Below are positions 4,668-22,251 of a stretch of DNA of 64,000 bases, piece by piece; position 1 is the stretch's first letter, and each line of letters starts with the position of its first letter. The notes under the pieces were generated by a model. The model was not told where the DNA came from and did not search any database. It saw only the letters and a program-made list of their open reading frames with translations. Position numbers and translations under genes: made by a program. This DNA comes from DASRDR01 sp963812945 [NCBI: uncultured Candidatus Rokubacteria bacterium] (GTDB lineage Bacteria; Methylomirabilota; Methylomirabilia; Rokubacteriales), in assembly GCA_963812945.1 (NCBI GenBank), contig CAWEXD010000012.1, positions 124,001 to 188,000 of the forward strand. The letters run 5' to 3'.

Positions 4668-7600
4668 CTACGCCTCCTTCCGCACGTTGCAGAGGAGCGC
4701 CTTGGACTCCTGGATGAACGTCGTCGGATCTCCGAGGCTCGCGACGAGGTCGTTCGTGACGTCGCCCCGCGCCGACTTCATGACGCCCTGGTACCCCCAG
4801 TGCCACGGGATGCCGACCTGGTAGACCTTCTTGCCGTTGATCACGAACGGCTTGATGCGCTCGGTCACCATGGCCCGCACCTTGATCTTCGCGCGGGGCG
4901 TCTCGACGCTCAGCATGTCCCCGTTCTGGATTCCGAGCTCCTTGGCCATCTCCGGTCCGATCTCGGCGAAGTGGCCGAAGAAGAGCTCCGAGAGCCACGG
5001 CACGTGGCGCGACATGCCCGCCGCGTGGTGCTCGGTGAGCCGGTACGTCGTCAGCACGAACGGGTACTTGTCCGGGGTCCCGAGCTTGTTGAGGTCGCCG
5101 ATGTCGTAGACCTTGGCGACCGGGTTGTTCTGGACCTTGGACAGGAGGTTCTGGGTCGGCGACTCGAAGGGCTCGTAGTGCTCGGGGAAGGGCCCGTCGA
5201 GGACCGACGCGAAGAACTGGCCGAGGCCGTGCGGGTTCATGATGAACGCGTCGGTGCCGGAGATGCCCTTGAACGGGCCGTCCTTGTTCCGCGGGGCGTC
5301 GGGCGCCATGGTGCCGGGGAAATCGGGGACATCGTTGCCCACCCACTTCTTCCCGGCGGCGTCCCACCAGATCAGCTTCTTCTTCTCGCTCCAGGGCTTC
5401 CCGGAGGGGTCGGCCGATGCGCGGTTGTAGAGAATCCGTCGGTTGGCCGGCCACACGAAGCCCCAGCCGTGAGCCATGTAGTCGTCGCCCTTCGGCTTCT
5501 CGCGCCGGAGGGCGAGGTTCTTCCCCTCCTCCGGATAGATCCCCGTGTAGATCCAGTTGCCGCAGGCCGTCGCCCCGTCATCCCGCAGGTGCCCGAAGGT
5601 CTTCATCGGCTGGCCGCGCTTGTAGAGCATCTCGCCGGGCTTGTCCTTGTCCGGGATGTCGTCGGTCGCGTAGCCGTTGCACTCCTTCAGGACCAGCTCC
5701 ATCTTCGGCTCCTTCTTCGCGCCCTCGGGCTGGTAGTCCCAGACGAGGTCGAGGACGGGCCGGTCCTTCTTGGCGCGAGAGCCGGTATAGAGGGCCTTGA
5801 GCCGGTTGCCGAGGTCGACGATGAACGCCGCGTCGGACCGCGAGTCGCCGGGGGACTCCACGGCCTTCACGTGCCACTGCGCGAGCCGCATGGTGTTGGT
5901 GATCGACCCGTCCTTCTCGGCCGCCGGCACGCCGGGGATGAAGAAGACCTCCGTCTGGCTGGACTTCGGGTCCGTGCCGGGGGCCTTCCACACAGCGGCG
6001 GTCTCGGTCTCGAAGAGGTCGACGACCACCAGCCAGTCGAGGTTGCGGAGCCCCTTGCGGACCATGCTGGCGTTGGGGCTGTCCACCGCGGGGTTCTGGC
6101 CCTGGCAGATGAATCCGGTCACCTTCTTCTGAACCATCCCCACCGTGAAGTGCTGGTGGGAGTACGCATCCGCCTTCTCCCGCTTCGGGAGATAGTCGTA
6201 GGCGTAGTCGTTGTCCTTCGTGGCGGCGGGGCCCCACCAGGCCTTGAGGAGGCTGATCACGAACTTGGGATTGTTCACCCAGTAGCCGCCCTTGGGCGTC
6301 GTCTTCTCGAGATAGTCGGTCAAGGTGGGGTGGGGCGCCTGGAGGGGCTCGGCGGGATAGCCCGGCAGCATGTGGTAGAGCGTCCCGAAGTCCGTGGCCC
6401 CCTGGACGTTCGAGTGCCCGCGCAGGGCCACCACGCCGCCGCCGGGACGTCCGACGTTGCCGAGGATGAGCTGCAGCATGCAGAGTGCGCGGATCTGCTG
6501 GACGCCGTTGGTCGACTGGTTGAGCTGGAGCGCGTAGGAGATGGTCGCGGTCTTGTCCGGCCCCGAGGCCGAGCAGAAGATGTCGGCCACCTTGAGGAAG
6601 AGGTCCTTCGGGATCCCGCAGACCTTCTCGACCATCTCCGGGGTGTAGCGCGCGTAGTGCCGGCGGAGGTGCTGGAACACGCAGTTCGGATCCTGGAGGG
6701 TCTTGTCCTGCTTGGGGTACCCTTCCCCGTCGAGCTGGAACTTCCAGGATCGCCTGGTCGTACGCCCGCTTGCCCGCATCGTAGCCGCTGAAGAGCCCGT
6801 CGAGATCCGCCGCGCCCTTGAATCCAGGGTCCAGGAGCAGGGAGGCGTTCGTGTAGGCGACCACGTAGTCGTGGAAGTACTTCTTGCTCTCGATCGCGTA
6901 CCGGATCAAGCCTCCGAAGTACACGATGTTCGTGCCGGAGCGGATCGGGACCCAGATGTCGGCGGTCGCGGACGTCCGGGTGAAGCGGGGGTCGACGTGG
7001 ATGATCTTCGCCCCGCGCTCCTTGGCCTTCATCACCCACTTGTAGCTGACCGGGTGGCACTCGGCCCAGTTGGAGGTGGGCATGATCACGTCGGCGTTGA
7101 CGACGTCGATCAGGTTGGTGGTCATGGCGCCCCGGCCGAAGGTCGCGCCGAGCGCGGGCACCGTCGCCGAGTGGCAGAGCCGCGCGGAGTTCTCCAGGTT
7201 CACCAGGCCGAGGCCCCGGGAAAGCTTCGCGATGAGGTAGTTCTCCTCGTTGTCCAGGACCGAGGAGCCCAGCCAGGCGATGCCCTCGCAGCGGTTGACC
7301 GTGATCGGCTTGCCGGACGCCTCGGGCGCCTTGGCCTGCGCGGGATAGGGCGAGTCGCCGGTCCCCGGCTTGGCGGCGCTCGTGGCCGCGGGCTTGGGCT
7401 GCGCGTCAACCTTGGGCGGCGCGGGCGTCACCGTCTCGACGAAGCTGGCGTCGCGCGTCTTCTTCACCCGCTGGGCGATCTGCTCCATCATCCAGTCGAG
7501 GGGCTTCTCCTCCCATCGGTCGCTGCCGGGCGCGCGGTACAGGGGCTTGGTCAAGCGGCGCTCGTTGACCGAGAGCTGGTAGGTCGAGGAGCCCTTCGGG

Positions 7601-7854
7601 CAGAGCGCGCCCTCGGTATGCGGGGTGTCGGGGTCGCCCTCGATGTCGACGATCTTGCCGTCCTTCACGTAGATCAGCTGGGCACACCCGACCGCGCAGT
7701 AGGGACAGACGCCGGGAAAAGTCTTGGCCTCCTTGATCCGGAGATCGTTCACGGCGGCCTCGACGGGGGCGAGGTCGATGCCCCGGGTGCCCGCGAGGAC
7801 GCCGCCGGAGGCGCCGCCCGACCACTTCAGGAAGTCACGTCGAGACAGGCTCAT
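4668..7854 (-). CDS. fdhA: Formate dehydrogenase catalytic subunit, Tat-exported, cysteine form (one frameshift)
   Basis: The molybdo/tungsto-bis-MGD subunit of a respiratory formate dehydrogenase, about 1,061 residues if the frame is restored. It starts with a Tat signal (MSLSRRDFLKWSGG). A [4Fe-4S] motif (CPYCAVGC with a later LCPKGS) follows, then a Pro/Ala-rich linker at about residues 140-175, and the metal ligand as cysteine in SARLCHSATV. The C-terminal pterin-binding part is intact. Near 6749-6752 one extra base breaks the frame: AYDQA continues as the expected WKFQLDGEGYPKQD only after a +1 shift. Both halves are otherwise undamaged, so a consensus error is as likely as a fresh mutation. 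An RBS and ATG at 7854 give the start. Confidence 0.9.
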
Positions 7855-9160: not shown

Positions 9161-10090
9161 ATGGCTGCGATCGAACGTCCAGGTAACGCGACCGGTGCGA
9201 CGGCCATCGTGCTGGCCGGAGGCCGGAGCTCGCGCATGGGCTCGCCCAAGGCGCTGCTCCTCTTCGACGGCGAGCCCCTCATCGTGCACATCGTCGCCAC
9301 GCTGCGACGCCTGTTTGCCGAGGTCGTCGTCGTCGCCGCACCCGGACAGAGCCTGCCGTCGATGCCCGTCACGCTGGTGCGCGACGAGGTCGAGCACCAA
9401 GGGCCCGTTGGCGGGCTCTACTACGGCCTTCGCGCCGCCTGCGGGGACGTCAGCTTCGCCACGTCCTGCGATTCCGCGTTCCTGAACGTGGACCTGATCT
9501 CACACCTCGTCTCGCAGATGCCGGAGCACGACGTCGTCGTGCCTCACTGGGAGGGCCGCGACCAGCCGCTGCATGCGGTCTATCGACGCAGCGTGCTACC
9601 GCACCTCGCGGAGCTCCTCGCGCGCGGCCAGCTGAGGCCCGTCTATCTGTTCGATCGCGTGCGAACCCGCAGGATCGACGAGGAGGAGATTCGCCGCTTC
9701 GATCCCGACGGCTCGAGCTTCTTCAACATGAACACCCCGGAGGACTACGCGGAGGCGCAGAGGCGCTGGAGCCACGCGCCACGACCAGCCGACCCGGACC
9801 CGGATGCCTCGATCCAGTGCACCGTCGAGCTGTTCGGGGCGGCGCGCTTCCTGGCGCACACGCGGGAGGTGCCCCTCAGGCTGCCCGCGGGCGCGACGTT
9901 CTCCCAGGTCTATGCGGCGCTCGCCGCCGAGCTGCCGGTGCTGGTCGGCAAGGTCATCGACCCCGATCGGGCCCGCCTCATCGACGGCTTTGCCTGCAAC
10001 GTGAACGGCCTGGACTTCATCCGGACGCCGACGGTCACCGTCAATCAGGGAGACAACATCGTCATTCTCTCGGCGGACGCGGGGGGCTAG
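9161..10090 (+). CDS. mobA: MobA-MoaD fusion: molybdopterin guanylyltransferase with C-terminal sulfur-carrier domain
   Basis: A 309-residue two-domain protein. Residues 1-205 are a MobA-type nucleotidyltransferase: the AIVLAGGRSSRMGSPKALL signature, then HQGPVGGL and a FFNMNTPEDY C-terminal motif. After a short Pro/Asp linker, residues about 215-309 form a MoaD/ThiS ubiquitin-like domain (VELFGAARFLAHTREVPL) ending in SADAGG. The C-terminal Gly-Gly is the residue pair activated as a thiocarboxylate in MoaD. The two families are normally separate proteins, one making molybdopterin dithiolene and the other adding GMP. The next gene, an AOR-family enzyme, starts 2 bases after the stop, so cofactor synthesis and target enzyme are coupled. 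Confidence 0.9.
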   Translation: MAAIERPGNATGATAIVLAGGRSSRMGSPKALLLFDGEPLIVHIVATLRRLFAEVVVVAAPGQSLPSMPVTLVRDEVEHQGPVGGLYYGLRAACGDVSFATSCDSAFLNVDLISHLVSQMPEHDVVVPHWEGRDQPLHAVYRRSVLPHLAELLARGQLRPVYLFDRVRTRRIDEEEIRRFDPDGSSFFNMNTPEDYAEAQRRWSHAPRPADPDPDASIQCTVELFGAARFLAHTREVPLRLPAGATFSQVYAALAAELPVLVGKVIDPDRARLIDGFACNVNGLDFIRTPTVTVNQGDNIVILSADAGG

Positions 10091-10092
10091 CG

Positions 10093-11940
10093 GTGCACGG
10101 CTTCTCCGGCCGCGTGCTGCACGTCGATCTGACGAGCGGCCGCAGCGCGCACCACGACCTGGAAGAGTCGCGGCTGCGCCAGTACATGGGCGGCATCGGC
10201 CTCGGAACGAGCCTGCTCCACGACTATGCGCCCCCGGGCGTCGATCCGCTGTCGCCCGACAACCCCCTGATCTTCGCATCCGCGCCCCTGGTCGGAACCG
10301 GTCTCACCACGACGGCGAAGTTCGCCGTCGTCACCAAGTCGCCGCTGACCGGATTCATCGCGGACTCGCTCTCGTCGAGCCACTTCGCCCTGGAGCTGAA
10401 GCGACTCGGCATCGACGCTCTGGTGATCACCGGCCAGGCGCCGTCCTTGGTCTACCTGTTCATCCGTGGCGAGGAGGTCGAGATTCGAGCGGCCGACCAG
10501 CTGAGGGGGAAGACCCCGGAGGAGACGCAGTCGTTCATCCGCTCCGACGCGGGGTGCCCCGGCGCCTGGGTGGCGTCCATCGGCAGCGCCGGCGAGAATC
10601 GGGTCCGCTTCGCCACGATCAGCAACGAGGGTCGCCAGGCCGGCCGGGGCGGCGTCGGCGCGGTGATGGGGTCGAAGAATCTGAAGGCCATCGCGGTGTC
10701 CGGCGATCGGGCCACGTCGGTCGCGGATCCTCGACAGGTCAGCGCGATCGCCGAGTCGCTGCGGCGCAAGAGCCTCGGCGCGGTGACCGCCAAGTACCGG
10801 CTCGTCGGGACCGTCGCCAACCTGGCGGTGTTCAACCGTCTCGGCACGCTGCCCACGCGCAACTTCCAGCAGTCCACTTTCGAAGAGGCCGACGCCCTGA
10901 CCGGGGAATCCTTGACCGAGACGAGCTTCAGCCGCCGGCACGGCTGCGCATCCTGCTCGATTCGCTGCGAGCGGCTCTTCAGGTCGCATGCCGGCGAAGA
11001 GCAGAGGCTCGAGTACGAGACCTTGTTTGCGCTCGGACCGCTGTGCGGCATCAGCGATCCCGAGGTGGTGCTCGCCGCGGCTGGTCTCTGCGATCGCTAT
11101 GGCCTCGATGCGATCAGCACCGGCGGCACGCTCGCGTGGGCGATCGAGAGCGTCGAGAAGGGAGTGCTGCCCGAGGCGGCCGCGCTCGGATTGCGCTTCG
11201 GCCACGGCGAAGCGATCCTGGCCACGATTCGCGCGATCGCCAATCGTGAAGGCGTCGGCGCGCTCCTGGCCGAGGGATCGAAACGCGCCGCGATCGAGAC
11301 CGGCCACGACAGCGGCTACTGGTCCATGCAGGTCAAGGGTCTCGAGCTTCCGGGGTACGACCCGCGAAGCCTGAAGACCATGGCGCTGGGCCTGGCCGTC
11401 AGCCCGCGCGGCGCCTGTCACAACCGGTCGGGCGCGTACGAAGCCGACTTTTCCGGAGAGGTGGATCGATTCCGCGGTGACGCGAGCCGGGGCGCCCTGG
11501 TCGCTGCGTCGGAAGACTTCGCCGCGGTGCTGGACTCGCTCATCGTCTGCAAGTTCCTGCGCAAGTGCTTCACCGACTTCTACGCCGAGGCCGCGGAGAT
11601 GCTCGCCGGAGTGACGGGCTGGGACTACACGGCCACGGAATTGCGGCAAGCGGGCGCGCGCATCCACACGCTGAAGAAACTCTTCAACATCCGCGAGCGC
11701 TGGCAGCCCGAGGACGATTGGCTGCCCGAGCGATTGCTGCGCGAGGCGCTGCCGACCGGGGTCGCCACCGGCGTCGGGCTGTCCCGAGACGAGCTGCGCG
11801 AGATGGTGGGCGGCTACTACGAGGCGAGGCAGTGGGACGAACACGGGTTCGTACCCGAGTGGAAGGTCAACGAGCTCGGAATTGCCGCGGCCGCAAAGGA
11901 AGGACATCGATGCCCAGCGACGAGACCCGCCGCCTCCTGA
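10093..11940 (+). CDS. Aldehyde:ferredoxin oxidoreductase family tungsto-enzyme
   Basis: A 615-residue AOR-family protein, full family length. The N-terminal domain starts with GFSGRVLHVDLTSGR and includes YMGGIGLG. The [4Fe-4S] ligands are in GCASCSIRCERL plus a fourth Cys in LIVCKF near the C-terminus. The pterin-contact region reads DAISTGGTLAWAIES and KGLELPGYDPRSLKTMALG. Enzymes of this family bind tungsten (sometimes molybdenum) by two pterins and oxidise aldehydes to acids with ferredoxin, or run the reverse reaction; the substrate here is unknown. The GTG at 10093 lies 2 bases after the mobA-moaD stop. The far 3' end overlaps the next small gene by 31 bases. Confidence 0.92.
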   Translation: MHGFSGRVLHVDLTSGRSAHHDLEESRLRQYMGGIGLGTSLLHDYAPPGVDPLSPDNPLIFASAPLVGTGLTTTAKFAVVTKSPLTGFIADSLSSSHFALELKRLGIDALVITGQAPSLVYLFIRGEEVEIRAADQLRGKTPEETQSFIRSDAGCPGAWVASIGSAGENRVRFATISNEGRQAGRGGVGAVMGSKNLKAIAVSGDRATSVADPRQVSAIAESLRRKSLGAVTAKYRLVGTVANLAVFNRLGTLPTRNFQQSTFEEADALTGESLTETSFSRRHGCASCSIRCERLFRSHAGEEQRLEYETLFALGPLCGISDPEVVLAAAGLCDRYGLDAISTGGTLAWAIESVEKGVLPEAAALGLRFGHGEAILATIRAIANREGVGALLAEGSKRAAIETGHDSGYWSMQVKGLELPGYDPRSLKTMALGLAVSPRGACHNRSGAYEADFSGEVDRFRGDASRGALVAASEDFAAVLDSLIVCKFLRKCFTDFYAEAAEMLAGVTGWDYTATELRQAGARIHTLKKLFNIRERWQPEDDWLPERLLREALPTGVATGVGLSRDELREMVGGYYEARQWDEHGFVPEWKVNELGIAAAAKEGHRCPATRPAAS

Positions 11941-15577: not shown

Positions 15578-16909
15578 CTACGCCGTGAGCGGCGTGCCGT
15601 TCGAGGCCGGCGTCCAGGGCGGCTTGGCCGCCGCGGCCTGGCGGATGCGCCGGAGGACCTCCTCGTCGGTCGGATACGGCGAGCGGAGCGCGGGCCGGAG
15701 AGGGAGCGGCACCTCGTCCATCCGGTAGACGGTGCCGGGCGCGCTGATCCCGGTCACAGCCGTGGTGATGTGGACGCGCGCCAGGCGGCTCGTGTGCGTG
15801 ACCTTGGGGTCGAGCACGATCGTCGGGATGCGCCGGAGGTGCTCGATGGCCGGCTGCGGCATCGTGGCCCCGGGATCGGCGCCCAGGATCAGCGCGGCGT
15901 CGTTGTCCCCCCGGACCAGGAGGTCCACCGTGGAGAACTCGCCCGGGTTGAAGCGCGGATAGCCGCGCGAGAGGTTGACCCCGAACGGATACCCGGTCGT
16001 CCAGCGAATCACCATGTCCGCACCGGTCACGTTGCCGTGCCCCCGCATCGGCATCGCCACGAACTTGGTGAACGCGTTCAGCTCGGTCACGAGCGACAGG
16101 ACGGAGGCCGAGTTCATGTGCTTCCCGCGGGTCATCGAGAGCCCCATGCCGAAGAACAGGACGCCGAACCGGGCCCGCTTCATCCGGTCGACCAGGTCCT
16201 GCAGCTGCTCGACGGTCACGCCGGTCTCCGCGACGCGGTCCCGGTTCACCGGCCGCCCCTTCACCAGCGCGATCAGGGTGGTGACCAGCTCGAAGTCCTT
16301 GCCGGGCTGGATCTGGAGGAAGAGGTCCGCCGCCCGCACGCTCGGGGTCTCCCGGATGTCCACCAGGACCATCGTCCGGCCTTTGCGGCCCTGCGGGACG
16401 AACTTGCCCTTCTGGGTGAGCGTGTACTTGGTGAAGTGCCGCGGGTGGCACTCCGCCGGGTTGCCGCCCCAGTAGAGGATGAAGTCCGCCCGGTTCTTCA
16501 CCTCGCCCAGCGTGCACGTCACCTTGCCACCCAACTGGGCGGCTATCTCAGTGGGGCCGTGTCAGAGGGAGGTGTGGCTGTCGATCACCCCGCCGATCAG
16601 CTCGGCCAGCGCGACCGCCTCCCGCTGCGCTTCGCAGGTGATGTTGCTCAGCCCGTAGACGAGCGGCATGTCGGCGTCGTAGAGGAGGGCGGCGGCGGCC
16701 TCGACGGCCGCGTCGACCGTGGCCGGCTTCCCGTCGACCAGCGCGTCGGGGTAGAGGCGCTCGGCCGTGTGGTTCTGGAACCAGGCGTCGCCGAGGCTGC
16801 AGGCGTTCTTGCTCTTGACGATCCGGTCGCCTTCGGCGTGGAGCTCGATGTCGTCGCAGACGCACCCGCAGAAGGTGCAGGTGGCGTTCTTCACGATCGT
16901 GACGGTCAT
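15578..16909 (-). CDS. fwdB: Formylmethanofuran dehydrogenase subunit B, selenocysteine-containing (in-frame TGA)
   Basis: A 443-residue Mo/W-pterin subunit if the TGA at 16562-16564 is read as selenocysteine 116. The frame is unbroken on both sides: SHTSL-U-HGPTEIAAQLGGK. Family members have Cys at this place (Cys118 in the structurally known archaeal FwdB) or Sec in some methanogens, as ligand of the metal. The N-terminus holds a [4Fe-4S] site, CTFCGCVC (from Cys11) with Cys37 in NACSLG. A bacterial-type SECIS hairpin follows the TGA. Bacterial FhcB of known methylotrophs has lost the metal site, so this copy looks like the archaeal, redox-active type. If TGA were a true stop, both pieces would be useless. 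Confidence 0.9.
16526..16543 (-). promoter_or_regulatory. Bacterial SECIS hairpin of fwdB
   Basis: Counting the T of the TGA as 1, bases 22-28 (GCCGCCC) pair with 33-39 (GGGTGGC) in seven pairs including one G-U, capped by an AGTT loop at 29-32. The loop has the GU step expected for SelB binding, and its distance from the UGA lies within the usual bacterial range (about 16-37 bases). The hairpin is coding sequence within fwdB. Confidence 0.8.
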
Positions 16910-16965: not shown

Positions 16966-17124
16966 TCAGCCGAGCTCGCGGCCGGGGAAGCTCCCCCGGA
17001 TCCGGCGGGGGCGATAGCGCCCGGTCTCCACGAGCTCCCAGGCGGGGCCGCGGTCGGGCTCGGGCGGCGCCGGCGGCGGCTCCCGTCTCGACCCGGAGTC
17101 GCTGGGCAGATCGGAAGCGGCCAT
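16966..17124 (-). CDS. 52-residue ORF inside the fwd gene cluster
   Basis: A short ORF between fwdD and fwdB, on the same strand, with an ATG at 17122-17124 and stop at 16966-16968. The first half is Pro-rich and likely disordered (SRREPPPAPPEPDRG). The second half looks structured: WELVETGRYRPRRIRGSFPG. It lies 28 bases after the fwdD stop and 56 bases before the fwdB start. It may be a small subunit or assembly factor of the formylmethanofuran dehydrogenase. No family was recognised. Confidence 0.55.
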   Translation of the reverse strand: MAASDLPSDSGSRREPPPAPPEPDRGPAWELVETGRYRPRRIRGSFPGRELG

Positions 17125-17152: not shown

Positions 17153-17512
17153 TCACGAGGGAGACGGACCCCCGGGGCCGACCGGCTCCACCTCGACCTC
17201 CCAGCCCTTCGAGGTGGGCATCCCCGTGCCGTCGGTGCCGCCCCCCATGAGCCGGGACGTGGGAGGGCCGTACGGCACGAAGATCATGCCGGGAGGCACC
17301 TTGCCCTCGCTGCACTGGAACATGGCTTCCCCGTAGGGCGTGCTCACCCGGACCGTCCCGCCCGGGGCCACGCCCACGGCGCGCATGTCGTCGGGATGCA
17401 TCGCCAGGGTGCTGACGATCGCCTGGTACTCGGGGTAGTCCTTGCCCACGTTGACCTGCTGGCCCTGCTTGGTCGTGCGGCCGGCGTTCATGAGGAACCG
17501 CTTCGTGGGCAT
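17153..17512 (-). CDS. fwdD: Formylmethanofuran dehydrogenase subunit D (molybdopterin dinucleotide-binding)
   Basis: A 119-residue stand-alone molydopterin dinucleotide-binding domain. It begins MPTKRFLMNAGRTTKQGQQ, close to the N-GR-T-QG pattern of FwdD, with GKDYPEYQ and a central VAPGGTVRVSTPYGEA beta-barrel segment, ending with GMIFVPYGPPTSRLMGGG. In archaeal complexes FwdD completes the pterin site of FwdB. The presence of this subunit, absent from metal-free bacterial Fhc complexes, supports a redox-active enzyme. It is the first gene of the fwd cluster and is divergent from the selenocysteine formate dehydrogenase. Confidence 0.92.
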   Translation of the reverse strand: MPTKRFLMNAGRTTKQGQQVNVGKDYPEYQAIVSTLAMHPDDMRAVGVAPGGTVRVSTPYGEAMFQCSEGKVPPGMIFVPYGPPTSRLMGGGTDGTGMPTSKGWEVEVEPVGPGGPSPS

Positions 17513-17671: not shown

Positions 17672-19597
17672 ATGGCGACGCACGAGGCTCCCGAGGTCCA
17701 CGGCCGTCTCACCACGCCCCTCGTGCGCGTCGACGGCGTCCTCAAGCCCACTTCCTGGGATATCGCGCTCGACACCGTGGTCCGCGGGCTCCAGCGCGCC
17801 AAGACCGCCCATGGACCGGACGCCGTCGGCATGTTCGCGTGCTCGAAGACCACCAACGAGCTGAACTACGCCGCGCAGAAGCTCATGCGCGCCGTCATCG
17901 GCACGAACAACATCGACAGCTGCAACCGGACCTGACACGCCCCCTCGGTCGCCGGTCTGGCGGCCGTGTTCGGTGCCGGGGGCGGCACCTCGTCCTACGA
18001 GGAGCTGGAAGCGACGGACATCCTGGTGCTCTGGGGCTCGAACGCCCGCGAGACGCATCCCATCATGTTCCTGCACATGCTCAAGGGGCAGCGGAACGGC
18101 GCCCACCTGGTCGTCGTCGACCCTCGCCGGACCGCGAGCGCGCACTGGGCGAACGAGCATCTCGCCCTTCGCGTGGGCTCGGACATCGCCCTCGCCAACG
18201 CCATGGCGCACGTCATCGTCGCCGAGGGCCTCCAGCACGCGTGGTTCATCGACAACGGCACCCAGGGCTACGCGGAGTTCCGGGCGTCGGTCGCCGACAC
18301 GACGCCGGAATGGGCGGAGCGCGAGACCGGCGTGCCGGCCGAACAGATCCGGCGGGTCGCGCGACGCTACGCGACCGCCGAGCGCGCCATCATCTGCTGG
18401 ACCCTCGGTATCACCGAGCACCACAACGCGGTCGACAACGTGCACGCCCTCATCAACCTGGCGCTCCTGACCGGCCACGTGGGGCGCCTCGGCTCCGGTC
18501 TCAATCCGCTGCGCGGCCAGAACAACGTGCAGGGCGGGGGCGACATGGGCGCGGTGCCGCTCCGCCTGCCCGGCTTCCAGGACGTCTTCGATCCCGCCAA
18601 GCGGCGCCCGTTCGAGGAGCGCTGGGGCGTCCGCCTCTCGGCGACCCGCGGCCTCAACGTGACCGAGATGCTGGAGGCCGCCGGCGAGGGCACGCTCCAC
18701 GCCCTCTACGTCATCGGCGAGAATCCGGCGGTCTCCGACGCCGACACCCACCACGTGGAGAAGTCGCTCGGGCGCCTCGACTTGCTCGTGGTCGAGGACC
18801 TCTTCCTGACGCGGACCGCCCAGCTGGCCCACGTCGTCCTGCCGGCCGCGGCCGGGTGGTGCGAGACGGAGGGGACGGTGACGGCGAGCGACCGGCGCGT
18901 CCAGCGCATCCGGAAGGCGCTCGACCCGCCCCCTGGCGCGCGGGACGATCTCGAGGTCGTCCAGGAGGTCGCGCGGCGGCTCGGGGCCGCCTGGTGGCGC
19001 CCCCAGACGGCGCGGGAGATCTGGGACGAGCTCCGGGCGCTCTCGCCGATCCACCGCGGCATGAGCTACGAGCGCCTCGAGACCGGCAGCGGGCTCCGGT
19101 GGCCCTGCTGGGACGAGAGCCACCCCGGCGAGCAGTTCCTTCACGCCCGCCTCTGGGCAACGCCCTGCCAGGGCGAGCGGGCCCCGTTCAAGGCCGTCGT
19201 CCACGATCCGCCCGTCGACCTGGTCGACGCCGAGTATCCCCTGCTCCTCACGACTGGGCGCCGTCTCGACTCCTTCAACACGGGGGTCCAGTCGAACCGC
19301 TACTCGACGCCGCTGCGCTCAGAGGAGGCGCTCCTCCTGAGCGCTGACGACATGCTCGCTCTCGACCTGGTCGACGGCGAGCGCGTCCGGGTGCGTTCGC
19401 GCCGGGGGCAGCTGGAGGTGCCGGTCCGCACCGACGACACGGTGCGGGCCGGCCTCGCCTTCATGACGCTCCACTTCCCGGAGCAGGTCATGACGAACTA
19501 CCTCACGATCAACGCGGTGGATCCCCTCTCCGGCACGGCGGAGTTCAAGGCGTCGGCGGTGCGCGTGGAGAAGGTCCTGGCGGCCCGGACGCCCTGA
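17672..19597 (+). CDS. fdhA: Formate dehydrogenase catalytic subunit, selenocysteine form, lacking its N-terminal Fe-S domains
   Basis: A 641-residue bis-MGD subunit if the TGA at 17933-17935 is selenocysteine 88. The frame continues SCNRT-U-HAPSVAGLAAVFG, matching the ligand site of formate dehydrogenase (U/C-H-x-P-S-V). Later motifs are usual: GLQHAWFIDNGTQGYAEF, NPLRGQNNVQGGGDMGA, and a C-terminal LTTGRRLDSFNTG pterin domain. The protein begins directly at HGRLTTPLVRVDG, which in relatives follows the [4Fe-4S] domain. That domain is instead at the end of the gene at 21346, so the subunit is split. Start is the ATG after an AGGAGGG site. The next gene begins 3 bases after the stop. Confidence 0.92.
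17947..17965 (+). promoter_or_regulatory. Bacterial SECIS hairpin of the selenocysteine fdhA
   Basis: With the T of the TGA as 1, bases 15-21 (GGTCGCC) pair with 27-33 (GGCGGCC), one G-U included, around a GGTCT loop at 22-26. The loop sequence and its spacing equal those of the E. coli fdhF SECIS. This is the strongest single argument that the TGA is decoded by SelB. Confidence 0.9.
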
Positions 19598-19600
19598 GGC

Positions 19601-21349
19601 ATGGACGCGTACCGGGGCGGGGGGCCGGCCAGCCCGGCCGAGCTGGCGGCGCTCGCGGAGGTGGCGGAGAACGCGCCCGCCGACCAGCTCCTGCCGGCGC
19701 TGCACGCCCTCAACGACCACGTCGGCTGGATCTCGCGGCCCGCGCTGGACGAGGTCACGCGCCGCCTCGATCTGGCTCCCGCCGTCGGATTCGGAGTGGC
19801 GAGCTTCTACGGAATGTTCTCCACCACGCCGCGGCCGCCGACCGTCGCGTACGTCTGCGACGACGTGCCGTGCCGGCTGGCGGGCGCCCTCGAGCGGATC
19901 GCCGCCCTGGAGGCGCGCCTCGGTCCGCCCCGCACGCCGCGCGACGGCGCCGTCTGGGAGCCGAGCCCGTGCCTCGGCCTCTGCGACTTCGCGCCGGCCG
20001 CGCTGGTCGACGGCCGCGCGGTCCACGTCGGCGGGCCGAGCACGGTGACGGACGCGCTGTCGGGAGCCGTGGCCGCGCGGCGCGCCCTGAGCGGTCCGCC
20101 GCCGGCGGGCGCGCCGCCGCGCGCTCGCGTGGCGGCGTCGGGCCCCGCGCCGCTTCTCCGCCGCGTCCTGGCCGGGGTCGACCCCGGGGATCTCGACGCG
20201 TACGCGGCCCACGGGGGCCTCGCCGGGCTCCGCGAGGCCCGGCGCCTGGGCCCCGCGGGCGTCCTCGCGGCGCTCAAGGCGAGCCGGCTGGCGGGGCGCG
20301 GTGGCGCCGCCTTTCCGGCCGCGACGAAGTGGGAGGCGGTCGCCCAGCACCCCGCCCGGCCCTGCTACGTGGTCGTCAACGCGGACGAGTCGGAGACCGG
20401 CACCTTCAAGGACCGGATCCTCCTTGAGTGGGATCCCTACGCGGTCCTCGAGGGCGCGGCCATCGCCGCCTACACGTGCGGGGCCGAGCGGGTCTTCATC
20501 TACGTCCGCGGGGAGTACCGCCACGGCCACGACCGGCTGCTCGCGGCCATCCGGGAGGTGGAGCGCCGGAACGTCCTCGGTGAGATCCTGGGCAGCGAGG
20601 CCCGCCTCTCGTTCGAGCTCCGACGCGGCGCGGGCGCCTACATCTGCGGCGAGGAGACCGCGCTCCTCAACTCGATCGAGGGGAAGCGCGGCGAGCCGCG
20701 CTCCAAGCCCCCCTTCCCGGTTCACTACGGCCTCTTCGGCCAGCCAACTGTGATCAACAACGTCGAGACGCTGGCGTGCGTGCCGGTGATCCTCACGGAC
20801 GGCGCCGACGCCTTTCGCGCCCTCGGCACCCCGGACTCGCCGGGCACGAAGCTTTTCTCCGTGGCGGGGCACGTCGGGCGGCCCGGCGTCTACGAGGTCC
20901 CGTCCGGAACGACGCTCCGCGCGCTCCTCGAGCTGGCCGGCGGCGTGCGCGCGGGCCACCGGCTGGGCGCGGTCCAGTGCGGGGGCGCGGCGGCGACGAT
21001 GCTGGGCCCCGGGGACCTGGACCTGGCGCTGAGCGCCGAGGGCCTCCGCCCGCGCGGCGCCACGGTGGGGTCGGGCGCCATCGTCGTCCTGGACGAGACC
21101 GCCGACGTGCTGGACCTGATCCGCCGGGGCGCCGAGTTCTTCGCCCACGAGTCCTGCGGCCAGTGCGTGCCGTGCCGGATCGGGACGCAGCGCCAGGTCG
21201 AGCTCCTGGAACGGCTGGCCCACGGCGAGGACGTGTCGGCGCTCCTCGGCGAGGTCGCCGCCGCCATGCGCGACGCGTCGATCTGCGGGCTCGGGCAGAC
21301 CGCCGCCAGCATGGTCCAGTCCGGGCTCAGTCACCTGCGCCGGCCATGA
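19601..21349 (+). CDS. fdhB: NAD-dependent formate dehydrogenase flavoprotein subunit (NuoE-NuoF fusion)
   Basis: A 582-residue fusion. Residues 1-155 are NuoE-like with a thioredoxin-fold [2Fe-2S] site (CDDVPC, later CLGLC). Residues about 175-582 are NuoF-like: NADH/FMN loop GRGGAAFPAATKW, then NADESETGTFKDR, GAGAYICGEETALLNSIEG and the [4Fe-4S] motif SCGQCVPC with a late ICGLG cysteine. The same fusion occurs in the tungsten formate dehydrogenase 1 of Methylobacterium. It links formate oxidation to NAD in the cytoplasm, or the reverse. The stop overlaps the next start (ATGA). Confidence 0.95.
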   Translation: MDAYRGGGPASPAELAALAEVAENAPADQLLPALHALNDHVGWISRPALDEVTRRLDLAPAVGFGVASFYGMFSTTPRPPTVAYVCDDVPCRLAGALERIAALEARLGPPRTPRDGAVWEPSPCLGLCDFAPAALVDGRAVHVGGPSTVTDALSGAVAARRALSGPPPAGAPPRARVAASGPAPLLRRVLAGVDPGDLDAYAAHGGLAGLREARRLGPAGVLAALKASRLAGRGGAAFPAATKWEAVAQHPARPCYVVVNADESETGTFKDRILLEWDPYAVLEGAAIAAYTCGAERVFIYVRGEYRHGHDRLLAAIREVERRNVLGEILGSEARLSFELRRGAGAYICGEETALLNSIEGKRGEPRSKPPFPVHYGLFGQPTVINNVETLACVPVILTDGADAFRALGTPDSPGTKLFSVAGHVGRPGVYEVPSGTTLRALLELAGGVRAGHRLGAVQCGGAAATMLGPGDLDLALSAEGLRPRGATVGSGAIVVLDETADVLDLIRRGAEFFAHESCGQCVPCRIGTQRQVELLERLAHGEDVSALLGEVAAAMRDASICGLGQTAASMVQSGLSHLRRP

Positions 21350-22251
21350 GCGACTCCGTCGCCCTGACCATCGACGGCCGGGAGGTCGGCGCCGCGCCGG
21401 GCACCACGATCCTGGGCGCCTGCGAGCAGCTCGGCATCGACACCCCGACACTCTGCTGGGGCCAGACCCTGATCCCGCAGAACGCCTGCCGCGTGTGCGT
21501 CGTCGAGCTGGAAGGGGCCCGCGTCCTCGTCCCCGCCTGCCAGCGCCGGGTGGAGCCGGGTATGCGTATCCGGACCGACAGCGACCGGGTGCGCCACGCC
21601 CGGAAGCTGGTCCTCGAGTTCCTGGGCTCGTCGGTGGACGTCTCGACCGCGCCGACCTTCCAGGCCTATCTCCGGCGCTACGGGGGCCAGCCGGAGCGGT
21701 TCGCCGGCGGACGCACGGTCGCGACGCCGCCCAAGCTCGACAACGAGGCGTACGTGCGCGACTACGCGAAATGCATCCTCTGCTACAAGTGCGTCCAGGC
21801 GTGCGGCTTCGAGTGGCAGAACACGTTCGCGATCGCCGTCGCCGGGCGCGGATTCGGGGCCCGGATCGCCACCGAGTACGAGGTGCCCCTCCCCGACTCG
21901 GCGTGCGTCTACTGCGGCAACTGCATCGCGGTGTGCCCGACGGGCGCCCTCGTCGGCCGGGCCGAGTTCGACCTCCGCCAGGCGGCGCGCTGGAACGAGC
22001 CGGCGCAGACGCGCACCGACACGATCTGTCCCTACTGCGGCGTGGGGTGCCTCCTCACGCTGCACGTCCAGGACAACCGCATCGTCAAGGTCACGTCGCC
22101 GTTCGACCATGACGTCACGCGCGGCAACCTTTGCGTGAAGGGGCGCTTCGGCTGGGCCTACGTCCACGCGACCGGCGAGACCGCGCCATCAGGTCGCACC
22201 GACGAGGGCGGGAGTCCGGAGTCCACGGACAAGCGACCTCCCTCGCGGTGA
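21346..22251 (+). CDS. Detached N-terminal Fe-S part of the formate dehydrogenase catalytic subunit
   Basis: A 301-residue iron-sulfur protein with NuoG-like order. A [2Fe-2S] ferredoxin domain (Cys37, 48, 51, 65) comes first, then two [4Fe-4S] sites (CILCYKCVQAC and CVYCGNCIAVCPTG). Last is a molybdopterin-oxidoreductase Fe4S4 domain, CPYCGVGC with GNLCVKGRFGWAYVH. In FdsA-type enzymes this stretch is fused to the N-terminus of the catalytic domain, and it stops exactly where the gene at 17672 begins. A charged tail of about 30 residues follows. The ATG overlaps the previous stop by four bases. The three proteins should form one soluble enzyme. Confidence 0.93.
   Translation: MSDSVALTIDGREVGAAPGTTILGACEQLGIDTPTLCWGQTLIPQNACRVCVVELEGARVLVPACQRRVEPGMRIRTDSDRVRHARKLVLEFLGSSVDVSTAPTFQAYLRRYGGQPERFAGGRTVATPPKLDNEAYVRDYAKCILCYKCVQACGFEWQNTFAIAVAGRGFGARIATEYEVPLPDSACVYCGNCIAVCPTGALVGRAEFDLRQAARWNEPAQTRTDTICPYCGVGCLLTLHVQDNRIVKVTSPFDHDVTRGNLCVKGRFGWAYVHATGETAPSGRTDEGGSPESTDKRPPSR

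What the first reader, a model, noticed from the sequence alone, without database searches (positions are those of the whole stretch)
16562..16564. Formylmethanofuran dehydrogenase FwdB with selenocysteine at the metal-ligand position, in a bacterium
The TGA falls in an otherwise open frame at codon 116, exactly where the family has the Cys/Sec that binds tungsten or molybdenum, and is followed by HGP as expected. Known bacterial Fhc complexes have a metal-free FhcB. A separate FwdD, intact Fe-S motif and Sec together suggest a redox-active, archaeal-type enzyme able to interconvert CO2 and formylmethanofuran.
Basis: partly seen in the sequence, partly recalled or inferred. Interest (0 to 1): 0.92.

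Follow-up and report, generated by a model that had tools for sequence, protein, structure and literature searches.

The report
Bacterial selenium formylmethanofuran dehydrogenase operon
A bacterium carries a selenium-containing version of an enzyme best known from methane-making microbes; such enzymes were already reported in a few bacteria, but here they form one conserved group that comes with a tiny partner protein that I found described nowhere.

Summary
The TGA at 16562-16564 is codon 116 of an otherwise open fwdB frame (15578-16909, minus) and aligns with the Mo/W-ligand Cys/Sec of solved FwdB chains. It is not an assembly error: the best match in each of 80 fetched loci has TGA there. 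The least synonymous variation in the gene starts at this codon, over a bacterial-SECIS-like hairpin with an AGUU loop. Of 50 carrier genomes searched, 49 have SelB over cut-off or a strong tRNA-Sec. Most likely it is a redox-active formylmethanofuran dehydrogenase in H4MPT-linked formaldehyde oxidation: in 25 carriers Ftr 25, Fae 24, CdhC 0. Sec-FmdB in bacteria is not new (PMC4807772, 2016). Apparently new is a ~50-residue ORF between fwdD and Sec-fwdB (window 16966-17124): found at 79 of 80 loci (the other is cut by a contig end), at none of 19 Cys/FhcB-type loci with upstream DNA held, and without a Pfam, NCBIfam or PDB relative. The window's own genome is not held, so its Sec machinery and phylum are unsettled.

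The parts
15578..16909 (-). fwdB, Sec-containing formylmethanofuran dehydrogenase subunit B, 443 aa
16562..16564 (-). TGA (Sec) codon 116 of fwdB, Mo/W ligand position
16526..16543 (-). SECIS-like hairpin, codons 123-128 of fwdB (window GCCGCC-C-AGTT-G-GGTGGC)
16966..17124 (-). conserved small ORF, 52 aa, between fwdD and fwdB; conserved C-terminal GRYRPRRIRGSFPGRELG
17153..17512 (-). fwdD, molybdopterin-dinucleotide-binding subunit, 119 aa
13944..15572 (-). fwdA, amidohydrolase subunit, 542 aa
13123..13932 (-). fwdC, GXGXG subunit, 269 aa
12134..13003 (-). fdhD, formate dehydrogenase accessory sulfurtransferase, 289 aa
17672..19597 (+). fdhA catalytic subunit with in-frame TGA at 17933-17935, divergent neighbour
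19601..21349 (+). NuoE-NuoF-like fusion, probably the NAD side of the formate dehydrogenase
21346..22251 (+). Fe-S N-terminal part of an NAD-type formate dehydrogenase alpha subunit as a separate gene

Best explanation
The TGA encodes selenocysteine, inserted by a bacterial-type SECIS hairpin lying in the frame just downstream. The operon fwdD - small ORF - fwdB(Sec) - fwdA - fwdC makes a redox-active formylmethanofuran (methylofuran) dehydrogenase. FwdA would hydrolyse the formyl carrier to formate, and the Sec-ligated Mo/W site of FwdB-FwdD would oxidise formate to CO2, passing electrons out through the FwdB [4Fe-4S] cluster. In relatives the gene sits in genomes with the H4MPT-linked formaldehyde-oxidising set, so the working direction is most likely oxidation. 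The complex seems to differ from the archaeal one in lacking FwdF and in having the ~50-residue protein, which I take to be a small subunit or assembly factor of FwdB-FwdD. Shown by sequence: the TGA, its conservation, the hairpin constraint, the active-site residues, the linkage of the small ORF. Inferred: Sec insertion, direction, electron acceptor, role of the small protein.
For: TGA at codon 116 in the best match of 80 of 80 loci. Among the 12-codon windows scored across codons 1-428, the least synonymous variation starts at codon 116 (0.64 against a mean of 0.91). The inner six hairpin pairs form in 79 of 81 sequences; the loop is AGTT in 80 of 81; codon 126 is TTG in 80 of 81 against 18% of Leu codons elsewhere; 22 non-Sec homologues form 1 to 6 of the 7 pairs. 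SelB over cut-off in 46 of 50 carriers (2 of 14 controls); tRNA-Sec matches above 58 bits in 41 of 50 (counted by hand). The Cys118, His119 and Arg288 positions of 5t5i_B are kept; FwdA HxH, K178 and TTD are kept against 5t5i_A (numbering by hand, roles recalled). Ftr 25 of 25, Fae 24 of 25, CdhC 0 of 25 carriers. Small ORF at 79 of 80 loci and at none of the 19 Cys/FhcB-type loci with upstream DNA held; one match in each of 30 carriers.
Against: No genome is held for the window, so selA/B/C/D were not checked there; the window itself gave no tRNA and no Rfam hit. Folding 51 nt after the TGA of the window alone is not unusual (z = -0.71); the case rests on comparison. One Cys homologue (L097) still forms 6 of 7 pairs, counting wobbles. 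Ftr, Mch and Fae were not among the window genes I profiled, and the rest of the window was not annotated, so the H4MPT setting is carried over from relatives (25 of 80). The archaeal tungsten-type models stay under their cut-offs: FwdA 541.7 of 950, FwdD 75.8 of 175, FwdC 186.6 of 340. No electron partner was identified. Presence of the small ORF cannot be separated from membership of the Sec clade.
Confidence: 0.78

Rival explanations
1. A scaffold-like FhcB as in methylotrophs: the complex only hydrolyses formyl-methanofuran to formate, and the neighbouring NAD-type formate dehydrogenase does the oxidation.
For: A Sec-type NAD formate dehydrogenase and fdhD flank the operon; FwdF over cut-off in none of 25 carriers; an ftr-like gene lies within the fetched locus in 25 of 80 loci, as in Fhc clusters.
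Against: Sec codon and hairpin are under constraint across the Sec clade. Of the 11 FhcB-like sequences in the tree, 9 have Gly, Ser, Phe or a gap at the site and 2 have Cys. FwdD and the Fe-S cysteines are kept.
Confidence: 0.12
2. A CO2-reducing enzyme of a carbon-fixing (methyl-branch) pathway, running as in methanogens.
For: Archaeal-type FwdABCD with 37-44% identity to solved archaeal FwdB; the reaction is reversible in archaea (recalled).
Against: CdhC in 0 of 25 carriers while Fae is in 24 and Ftr in 25; no FwdF over cut-off.
Confidence: 0.07
3. The TGA is a true stop or an assembly error and the gene is broken or two proteins are made.
For: None beyond the stop codon itself.
Against: TGA in the same place in 80 of 80 loci, downstream synonymous constraint, and a second in-frame TGA at the equivalent site of fdhA.
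Confidence: 0.02

Closest known systems
Sec-FmdB of planctomycete P2 and of a Lake Washington fosmid (PMC4807772, section 17 read in full)
   Same: Bacterial, Sec at the ligand position, fmdD-fmdB-fmdA-fmdC order; some organisms hold Sec and Cys forms.
   Different: That section mentions no small ORF and no SECIS analysis; its supplements were not seen, and I did not compare the P2 sequence itself.
Archaeal Fwd/Fmd complexes (5t5i, 9sfi, 8rja, 7bkb, 9sw6)
   Same: FwdA, B, D homologous to solved chains over most of their length; FwdC by profile; Cys/Sec, His119, Arg288, Fe-S cysteines kept.
   Different: FwdF not over cut-off in 25 carriers; SECIS-like element inside the gene (archaeal SECIS in the untranslated region: recalled); extra ~50-residue ORF without a PDB match.
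Bacterial Cys-type FwdB (L087-L090, L095-L099)
   Same: fwdD next to fwdB in 7 of 9; 54-62% identity to the window.
   Different: Cys codon; 1 to 6 of 7 hairpin pairs; peptide mostly AFQGVG or ALQGVG instead of AAQLGG; no small ORF.
FhcB of the formyltransferase/hydrolase complex (PMC10100899 table passage: lacks Mo/W-bisPGD)
   Same: Distant homology.
   Different: Mostly no metal ligand residue; hydrolase scaffold.

Membership tests
FwdB/FmdB (TIGR03129) | Curated profile score | tested here: met
   508.4 bits, cut-off 327.8
FwdB/FmdB (TIGR03129) | Cys or Sec Mo/W ligand followed by His, and distal Arg | tested here: met
   Positions 118, 119, 288 of 5t5i_B; roles recalled
FwdB/FmdB (TIGR03129) | N-terminal [4Fe-4S] cysteines | tested here: met
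   CTFCGCVC...NAC aligned to CPFCGTLC...NAC
FwdB/FmdB (TIGR03129) | Mo/W-bisPGD bound and formate/CO2 activity | not testable with these tools
   needs protein
Selenoproteins (bacterial) | In-frame UGA at a site occupied by Cys or Sec in homologues | tested here: met
Selenoproteins (bacterial) | SECIS hairpin just 3' of UGA with G/U in a small apical loop (recalled rule) | tested here: met
   single-sequence z-score not unusual
Selenoproteins (bacterial) | SelA, SelB, SelC, SelD in the same genome | tested here: inconclusive
   Own genome not held; SelB and tRNA-Sec tested in 50 of 80 carrier genomes; SelA and SelD not tested
Archaeal-type Fwd complex | FwdA, FwdC, FwdD present | tested here: met
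   TIGR03121 685.1 (cut-off 392.75), TIGR03122 259.3 (130.65), FwdD by PDB match E 1.7e-18
Archaeal-type Fwd complex | Scores of the tungsten-type models NF042911, NF042910, NF042908 | tested here: not met
   541.7 of 950, 186.6 of 340, 75.8 of 175
Archaeal-type Fwd complex | FwdF polyferredoxin | tested here: not met
   0 of 25 carriers over cut-off, best 53.9 bits of 375; only 1 of 14 controls passes it, although two are methanogens; FwdG not tested
Fhc formyltransferase/hydrolase | FhcB without metal ligand | tested here: not met
   Sec codon in the ligand position
Fhc formyltransferase/hydrolase | FhcD (Ftr) in the cluster | tested here: inconclusive
   not among the profiled window genes; ftr-like gene within the fetched locus in 25 of 80 loci

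The most novel reading that the evidence does not exclude
Bacterial Sec-Fwd is a distinct enzyme type: the six-subunit archaeal complex has been recast as FwdABCD plus a dedicated ~50-residue subunit that replaces the polyferredoxin side, by docking a beta-hairpin and an invariant basic tail on FwdB-FwdD. This lets a selenium formylmethanofuran dehydrogenase work with another electron acceptor in formaldehyde-oxidising bacteria.
Probability: 0.3. Interest if true: 0.78.

Novelty: new variant of a known kind. Interest (0 to 1): 0.58.

Why it matters
It goes against the simple rule that a redox-active formylmethanofuran dehydrogenase belongs to archaea while bacteria have a metal-free hydrolase. 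It shows one conserved bacterial Sec clade in which the UGA, its SECIS-like hairpin and even the peptide under that hairpin are nearly fixed. The tightly linked small ORF is a concrete, testable candidate component that annotation can easily miss. If it is a subunit, it could help to explain how Fwd works without its ferredoxin subunits.

Tried and rejected
Sequencing error or pseudogene: rejected. Archaeal contig: judged unlikely from the in-gene hairpin and bacterial relatives at 72-87%, but the phylum of the window is open. I tried FdnG as a marker: the best identity in 297 genomes of the phylum of G001 (record title Acidobacteria) is 50%, against 85-87% for the best FwdB, so that phylum looks unlikely; it was not tried in other phyla (that search was the last allowed). 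Window genes other than fwdA-D that I sought in the 80 loci (FdhD, FdhA, FdhB, its Fe-S part, MobA, AOR, FdnG part, FdnI) gave no conserved neighbour: MobA-like weak hits in 2 loci, FdhA hits on fwdB itself and one separate relative in L070. Small ORF fused to FwdD: it looked fused in L051 by frame length but is a different frame; 0 fusions in the 77 loci where both could be placed. Small ORF as an RNA element: rejected because third codon positions vary most. AlphaFold of the small ORF alone: mean pLDDT 71, pTM 0.28, a short beta-hairpin and a tail; too weak for a fold search, none was run. PHROGs and PADLOC were not searched.

Rows dropped or parts only: the codon alignment took one hit per locus at 68% identity or more (80 loci plus window); entropies used 65 of 67 small ORFs (L011 and rows with N left out); the tree used every third of 99 Sec-type hits (33, some the same place fetched twice) plus window, 22 others and 5 archaeal chains, with hits spanning under about 360 query residues dropped. 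SelB and tRNA-Sec were searched in 50 of 80 carriers, the small ORF genome-wide in 30 of 80, Ftr, Fae, CdhC and FwdF in 25 of 80. In the phylum-wide small-ORF searches at most 23 candidates per genome were scored, so absences are provisional; one genome without Sec-FwdB (G403) gave a borderline match (E 8.6e-4, inside a 592-aa frame), taken as chance. Two other matches with one TGA were not counted as Sec-FwdB: G559 (L104, 40% identity, Gly at the ligand codon) and G270 (33%, not examined).

Full report
Observation. The codon 16562-16564 (minus strand) is TGA and is the only stop inside window:15578-16909:-. The joined 443-residue protein is FwdB by NCBIfam TIGR03129 (508.4 bits, cut-off 327.8). 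In the PDB alignments residue 116 falls on a Cys of the tungsten FwdB 5t5i_B that I count as C118, and on an X of 9sfi_Q, which I take to be Sec. Separate genes for FwdD, FwdA and FwdC and FdhD lie on the same strand. On the other strand starts an NAD-type formate dehydrogenase whose catalytic subunit also has a TGA at the ligand codon, 17933-17935.

More than chance. A scan of one genome per species returned 80 loci, the best of 147 relatives; 6 titles name Acidobacteria, 2 an unnamed bacterium, the others planctomycetes. The best match in each of the 80 has TGA at this codon; three further copies in those loci have TGC, TGT and ACC. In a codon alignment of 81 sequences, the 12-codon window with the lowest relative synonymous entropy starts at codon 116 (0.64 against a mean of 0.91). 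Codons 123-128 form a seven-pair hairpin starting 18 nt after the TGA, with loop AGTT in 80 of 81; the inner six pairs form in 79 of 81 and all seven in 72 of 81; codon 126 is TTG in 80 of 81, while TTG is 18% of Leu codons elsewhere in these genes. Twenty-two Cys, Gly, Thr or other homologues form 1 to 6 of the seven pairs (6 in one Cys form, L097), and most Cys types have another peptide there (AFQGVG or ALQGVG against AAQLGG). So the element seems to constrain the protein. Against this, the window sequence alone does not fold unusually well (z = -0.71).

Sec machinery. The window's genome is not held and the window gave no tRNA or Rfam hit. In 50 of the 80 carrier genomes SelB passes its cut-off in 46 (2 of 14 controls). 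tRNA-Sec matches above 58 bits occur in 41, counted by hand, since the gathering score also admits other tRNAs (46 of 50 carriers, 5 of 14 controls). Only G013 lacks both by these thresholds. SelA and SelD were not searched.

Family tree. In a midpoint-rooted FastTree of 61 sequences the Sec-type proteins, window included, form one clade (34 sequences, local support 0.93). Two tandem non-Sec copies (L053 Cys, L069 Thr) join it (0.92), then eight bacterial Cys types (0.92). The five archaeal chains form a clade (1.0), with one bacterial Cys form (L090) beside them (0.86). Eleven FhcB-like sequences lie apart; 9 have Gly, Ser, Phe or a gap at the ligand codon and 2 have Cys. The L069 Thr copy keeps the AAQLGG peptide with only 5 of 7 pairs and a changed loop, as expected of a former Sec protein. 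In 297 genomes of the phylum of G001 (title Acidobacteria) 6 have the TGA form (72-87% identity) and 4 a form at 54-58% without a stop; in 294 of the phylum of G002 (title Gemmataceae) 4 have the TGA form.

Setting and direction. An ftr-like gene, named by eye, lies within the fetched locus in 25 of 80. In 25 carriers Ftr is over cut-off in 25, Fae in 24, CdhC in 0. This is the gene set of H4MPT-linked formaldehyde oxidation, not of acetyl-CoA-pathway carbon fixation. FwdF reaches its cut-off in none of the 25 (best 53.9 of 375 bits); the cut-off is strict, since only 1 of 14 controls passes although two are methanogens. No cluster of neighbouring ORFs found in 8 or more of the 80 loci looked ferredoxin-like by eye. 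The electron acceptor is unknown. The divergent formate dehydrogenase of the window is not a conserved neighbour. The archaeal tungsten-type profiles for FwdA, FwdC and FwdD stay below their cut-offs, while the general FwdA and FwdC models are passed.

The small ORF. Between fwdD and fwdB lies a 52-codon ORF (window 16966-17124, minus). A motif search finds it in 66 of 80 loci, a profile in 13 of the other 14; in the 77 loci where fwdD and the ORF could both be placed it lies downstream of fwdD and upstream of Sec-fwdB. The last locus, L049, starts 54 nt upstream of fwdB, and its genome has the ORF at the end of another contig. It is not seen at the 20 Cys- or FhcB-type loci fetched; one of these, L106, is cut before the upstream region, so 19 count. 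A profile search gives one match in each of 30 carriers. In the two phylum samples it is found in all 10 Sec-FwdB genomes and in the other 581 only as one borderline match, with at most 23 candidates scored per genome. First and second codon positions are conserved and third positions vary (mean entropy 0.46, 0.50, 1.48), so it is a protein gene. The R of G-R, P, the second R of P-x-R, G-S, G-R and the last G are the same in all 65 sequences compared. Pfam (two sequences), NCBIfam (three) and the PDB up to E = 10 (only LuxO chains, E about 1) give no convincing relative. A model of the protein alone shows a short beta-hairpin and a tail at modest confidence. I propose a small subunit or assembly factor of FwdB-FwdD; its linkage to Sec cannot be separated from linkage to this clade.

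What is known. PMC4807772 (section 17 read in full, other passages; [quoted passage not shown] PMC7331816 (passages) stated an absence of bacterial FwdB; PMC10100899 (passages) reports bacterial FwdB acquired from archaea and lists FhcB as lacking Mo/W-bisPGD. PMC13188914 and PMC9312934 (passages) list FwdB as a selenoprotein family; the passage seen of the former speaks of methanogens. PMC1088965 (one passage) did not detect it in the Sargasso Sea data. Paper searches listed nothing that I could recognise as about the small ORF; sequence motifs cannot be searched as text and most hits were seen only as listings, so this is weak.

Verdict. The finding is real and well explained: a bacterial member of the Sec-FwdB kind, already in print, with wider and stricter conservation than I saw reported, and an apparently unreported partner ORF that makes it a new variant.

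Noticed in passing
window 4668-7854 (-): fdnG-like formate dehydrogenase-N alpha has Cys, not Sec, at the ligand position and is split by a change of frame near 6750, natural or an assembly error.
   Followed up: partly
window 17672-22251 (+): Sec-type NAD formate dehydrogenase in which the Fe-S N-terminal part is a separate gene behind a NuoE-NuoF fusion; a hairpin with loop GGUCU follows its TGA.
   Followed up: partly
L069:8547-9824: Tandem FwdB copy with Thr at the ligand codon that keeps the SECIS-type peptide but not the full hairpin or loop, a likely fossil of a Sec protein.
   Followed up: partly
L053:2011-4776: Sec and Cys copies of fwdB side by side in one locus, with a single small ORF upstream.
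   Followed up: partly
window 9161-11940 (+): A MobA-like protein with a MoaD-like C-terminal part (both by eye), followed by an aldehyde:ferredoxin oxidoreductase (Pfam AFOR), suggests a Mo/W gene neighbourhood.
   Followed up: no
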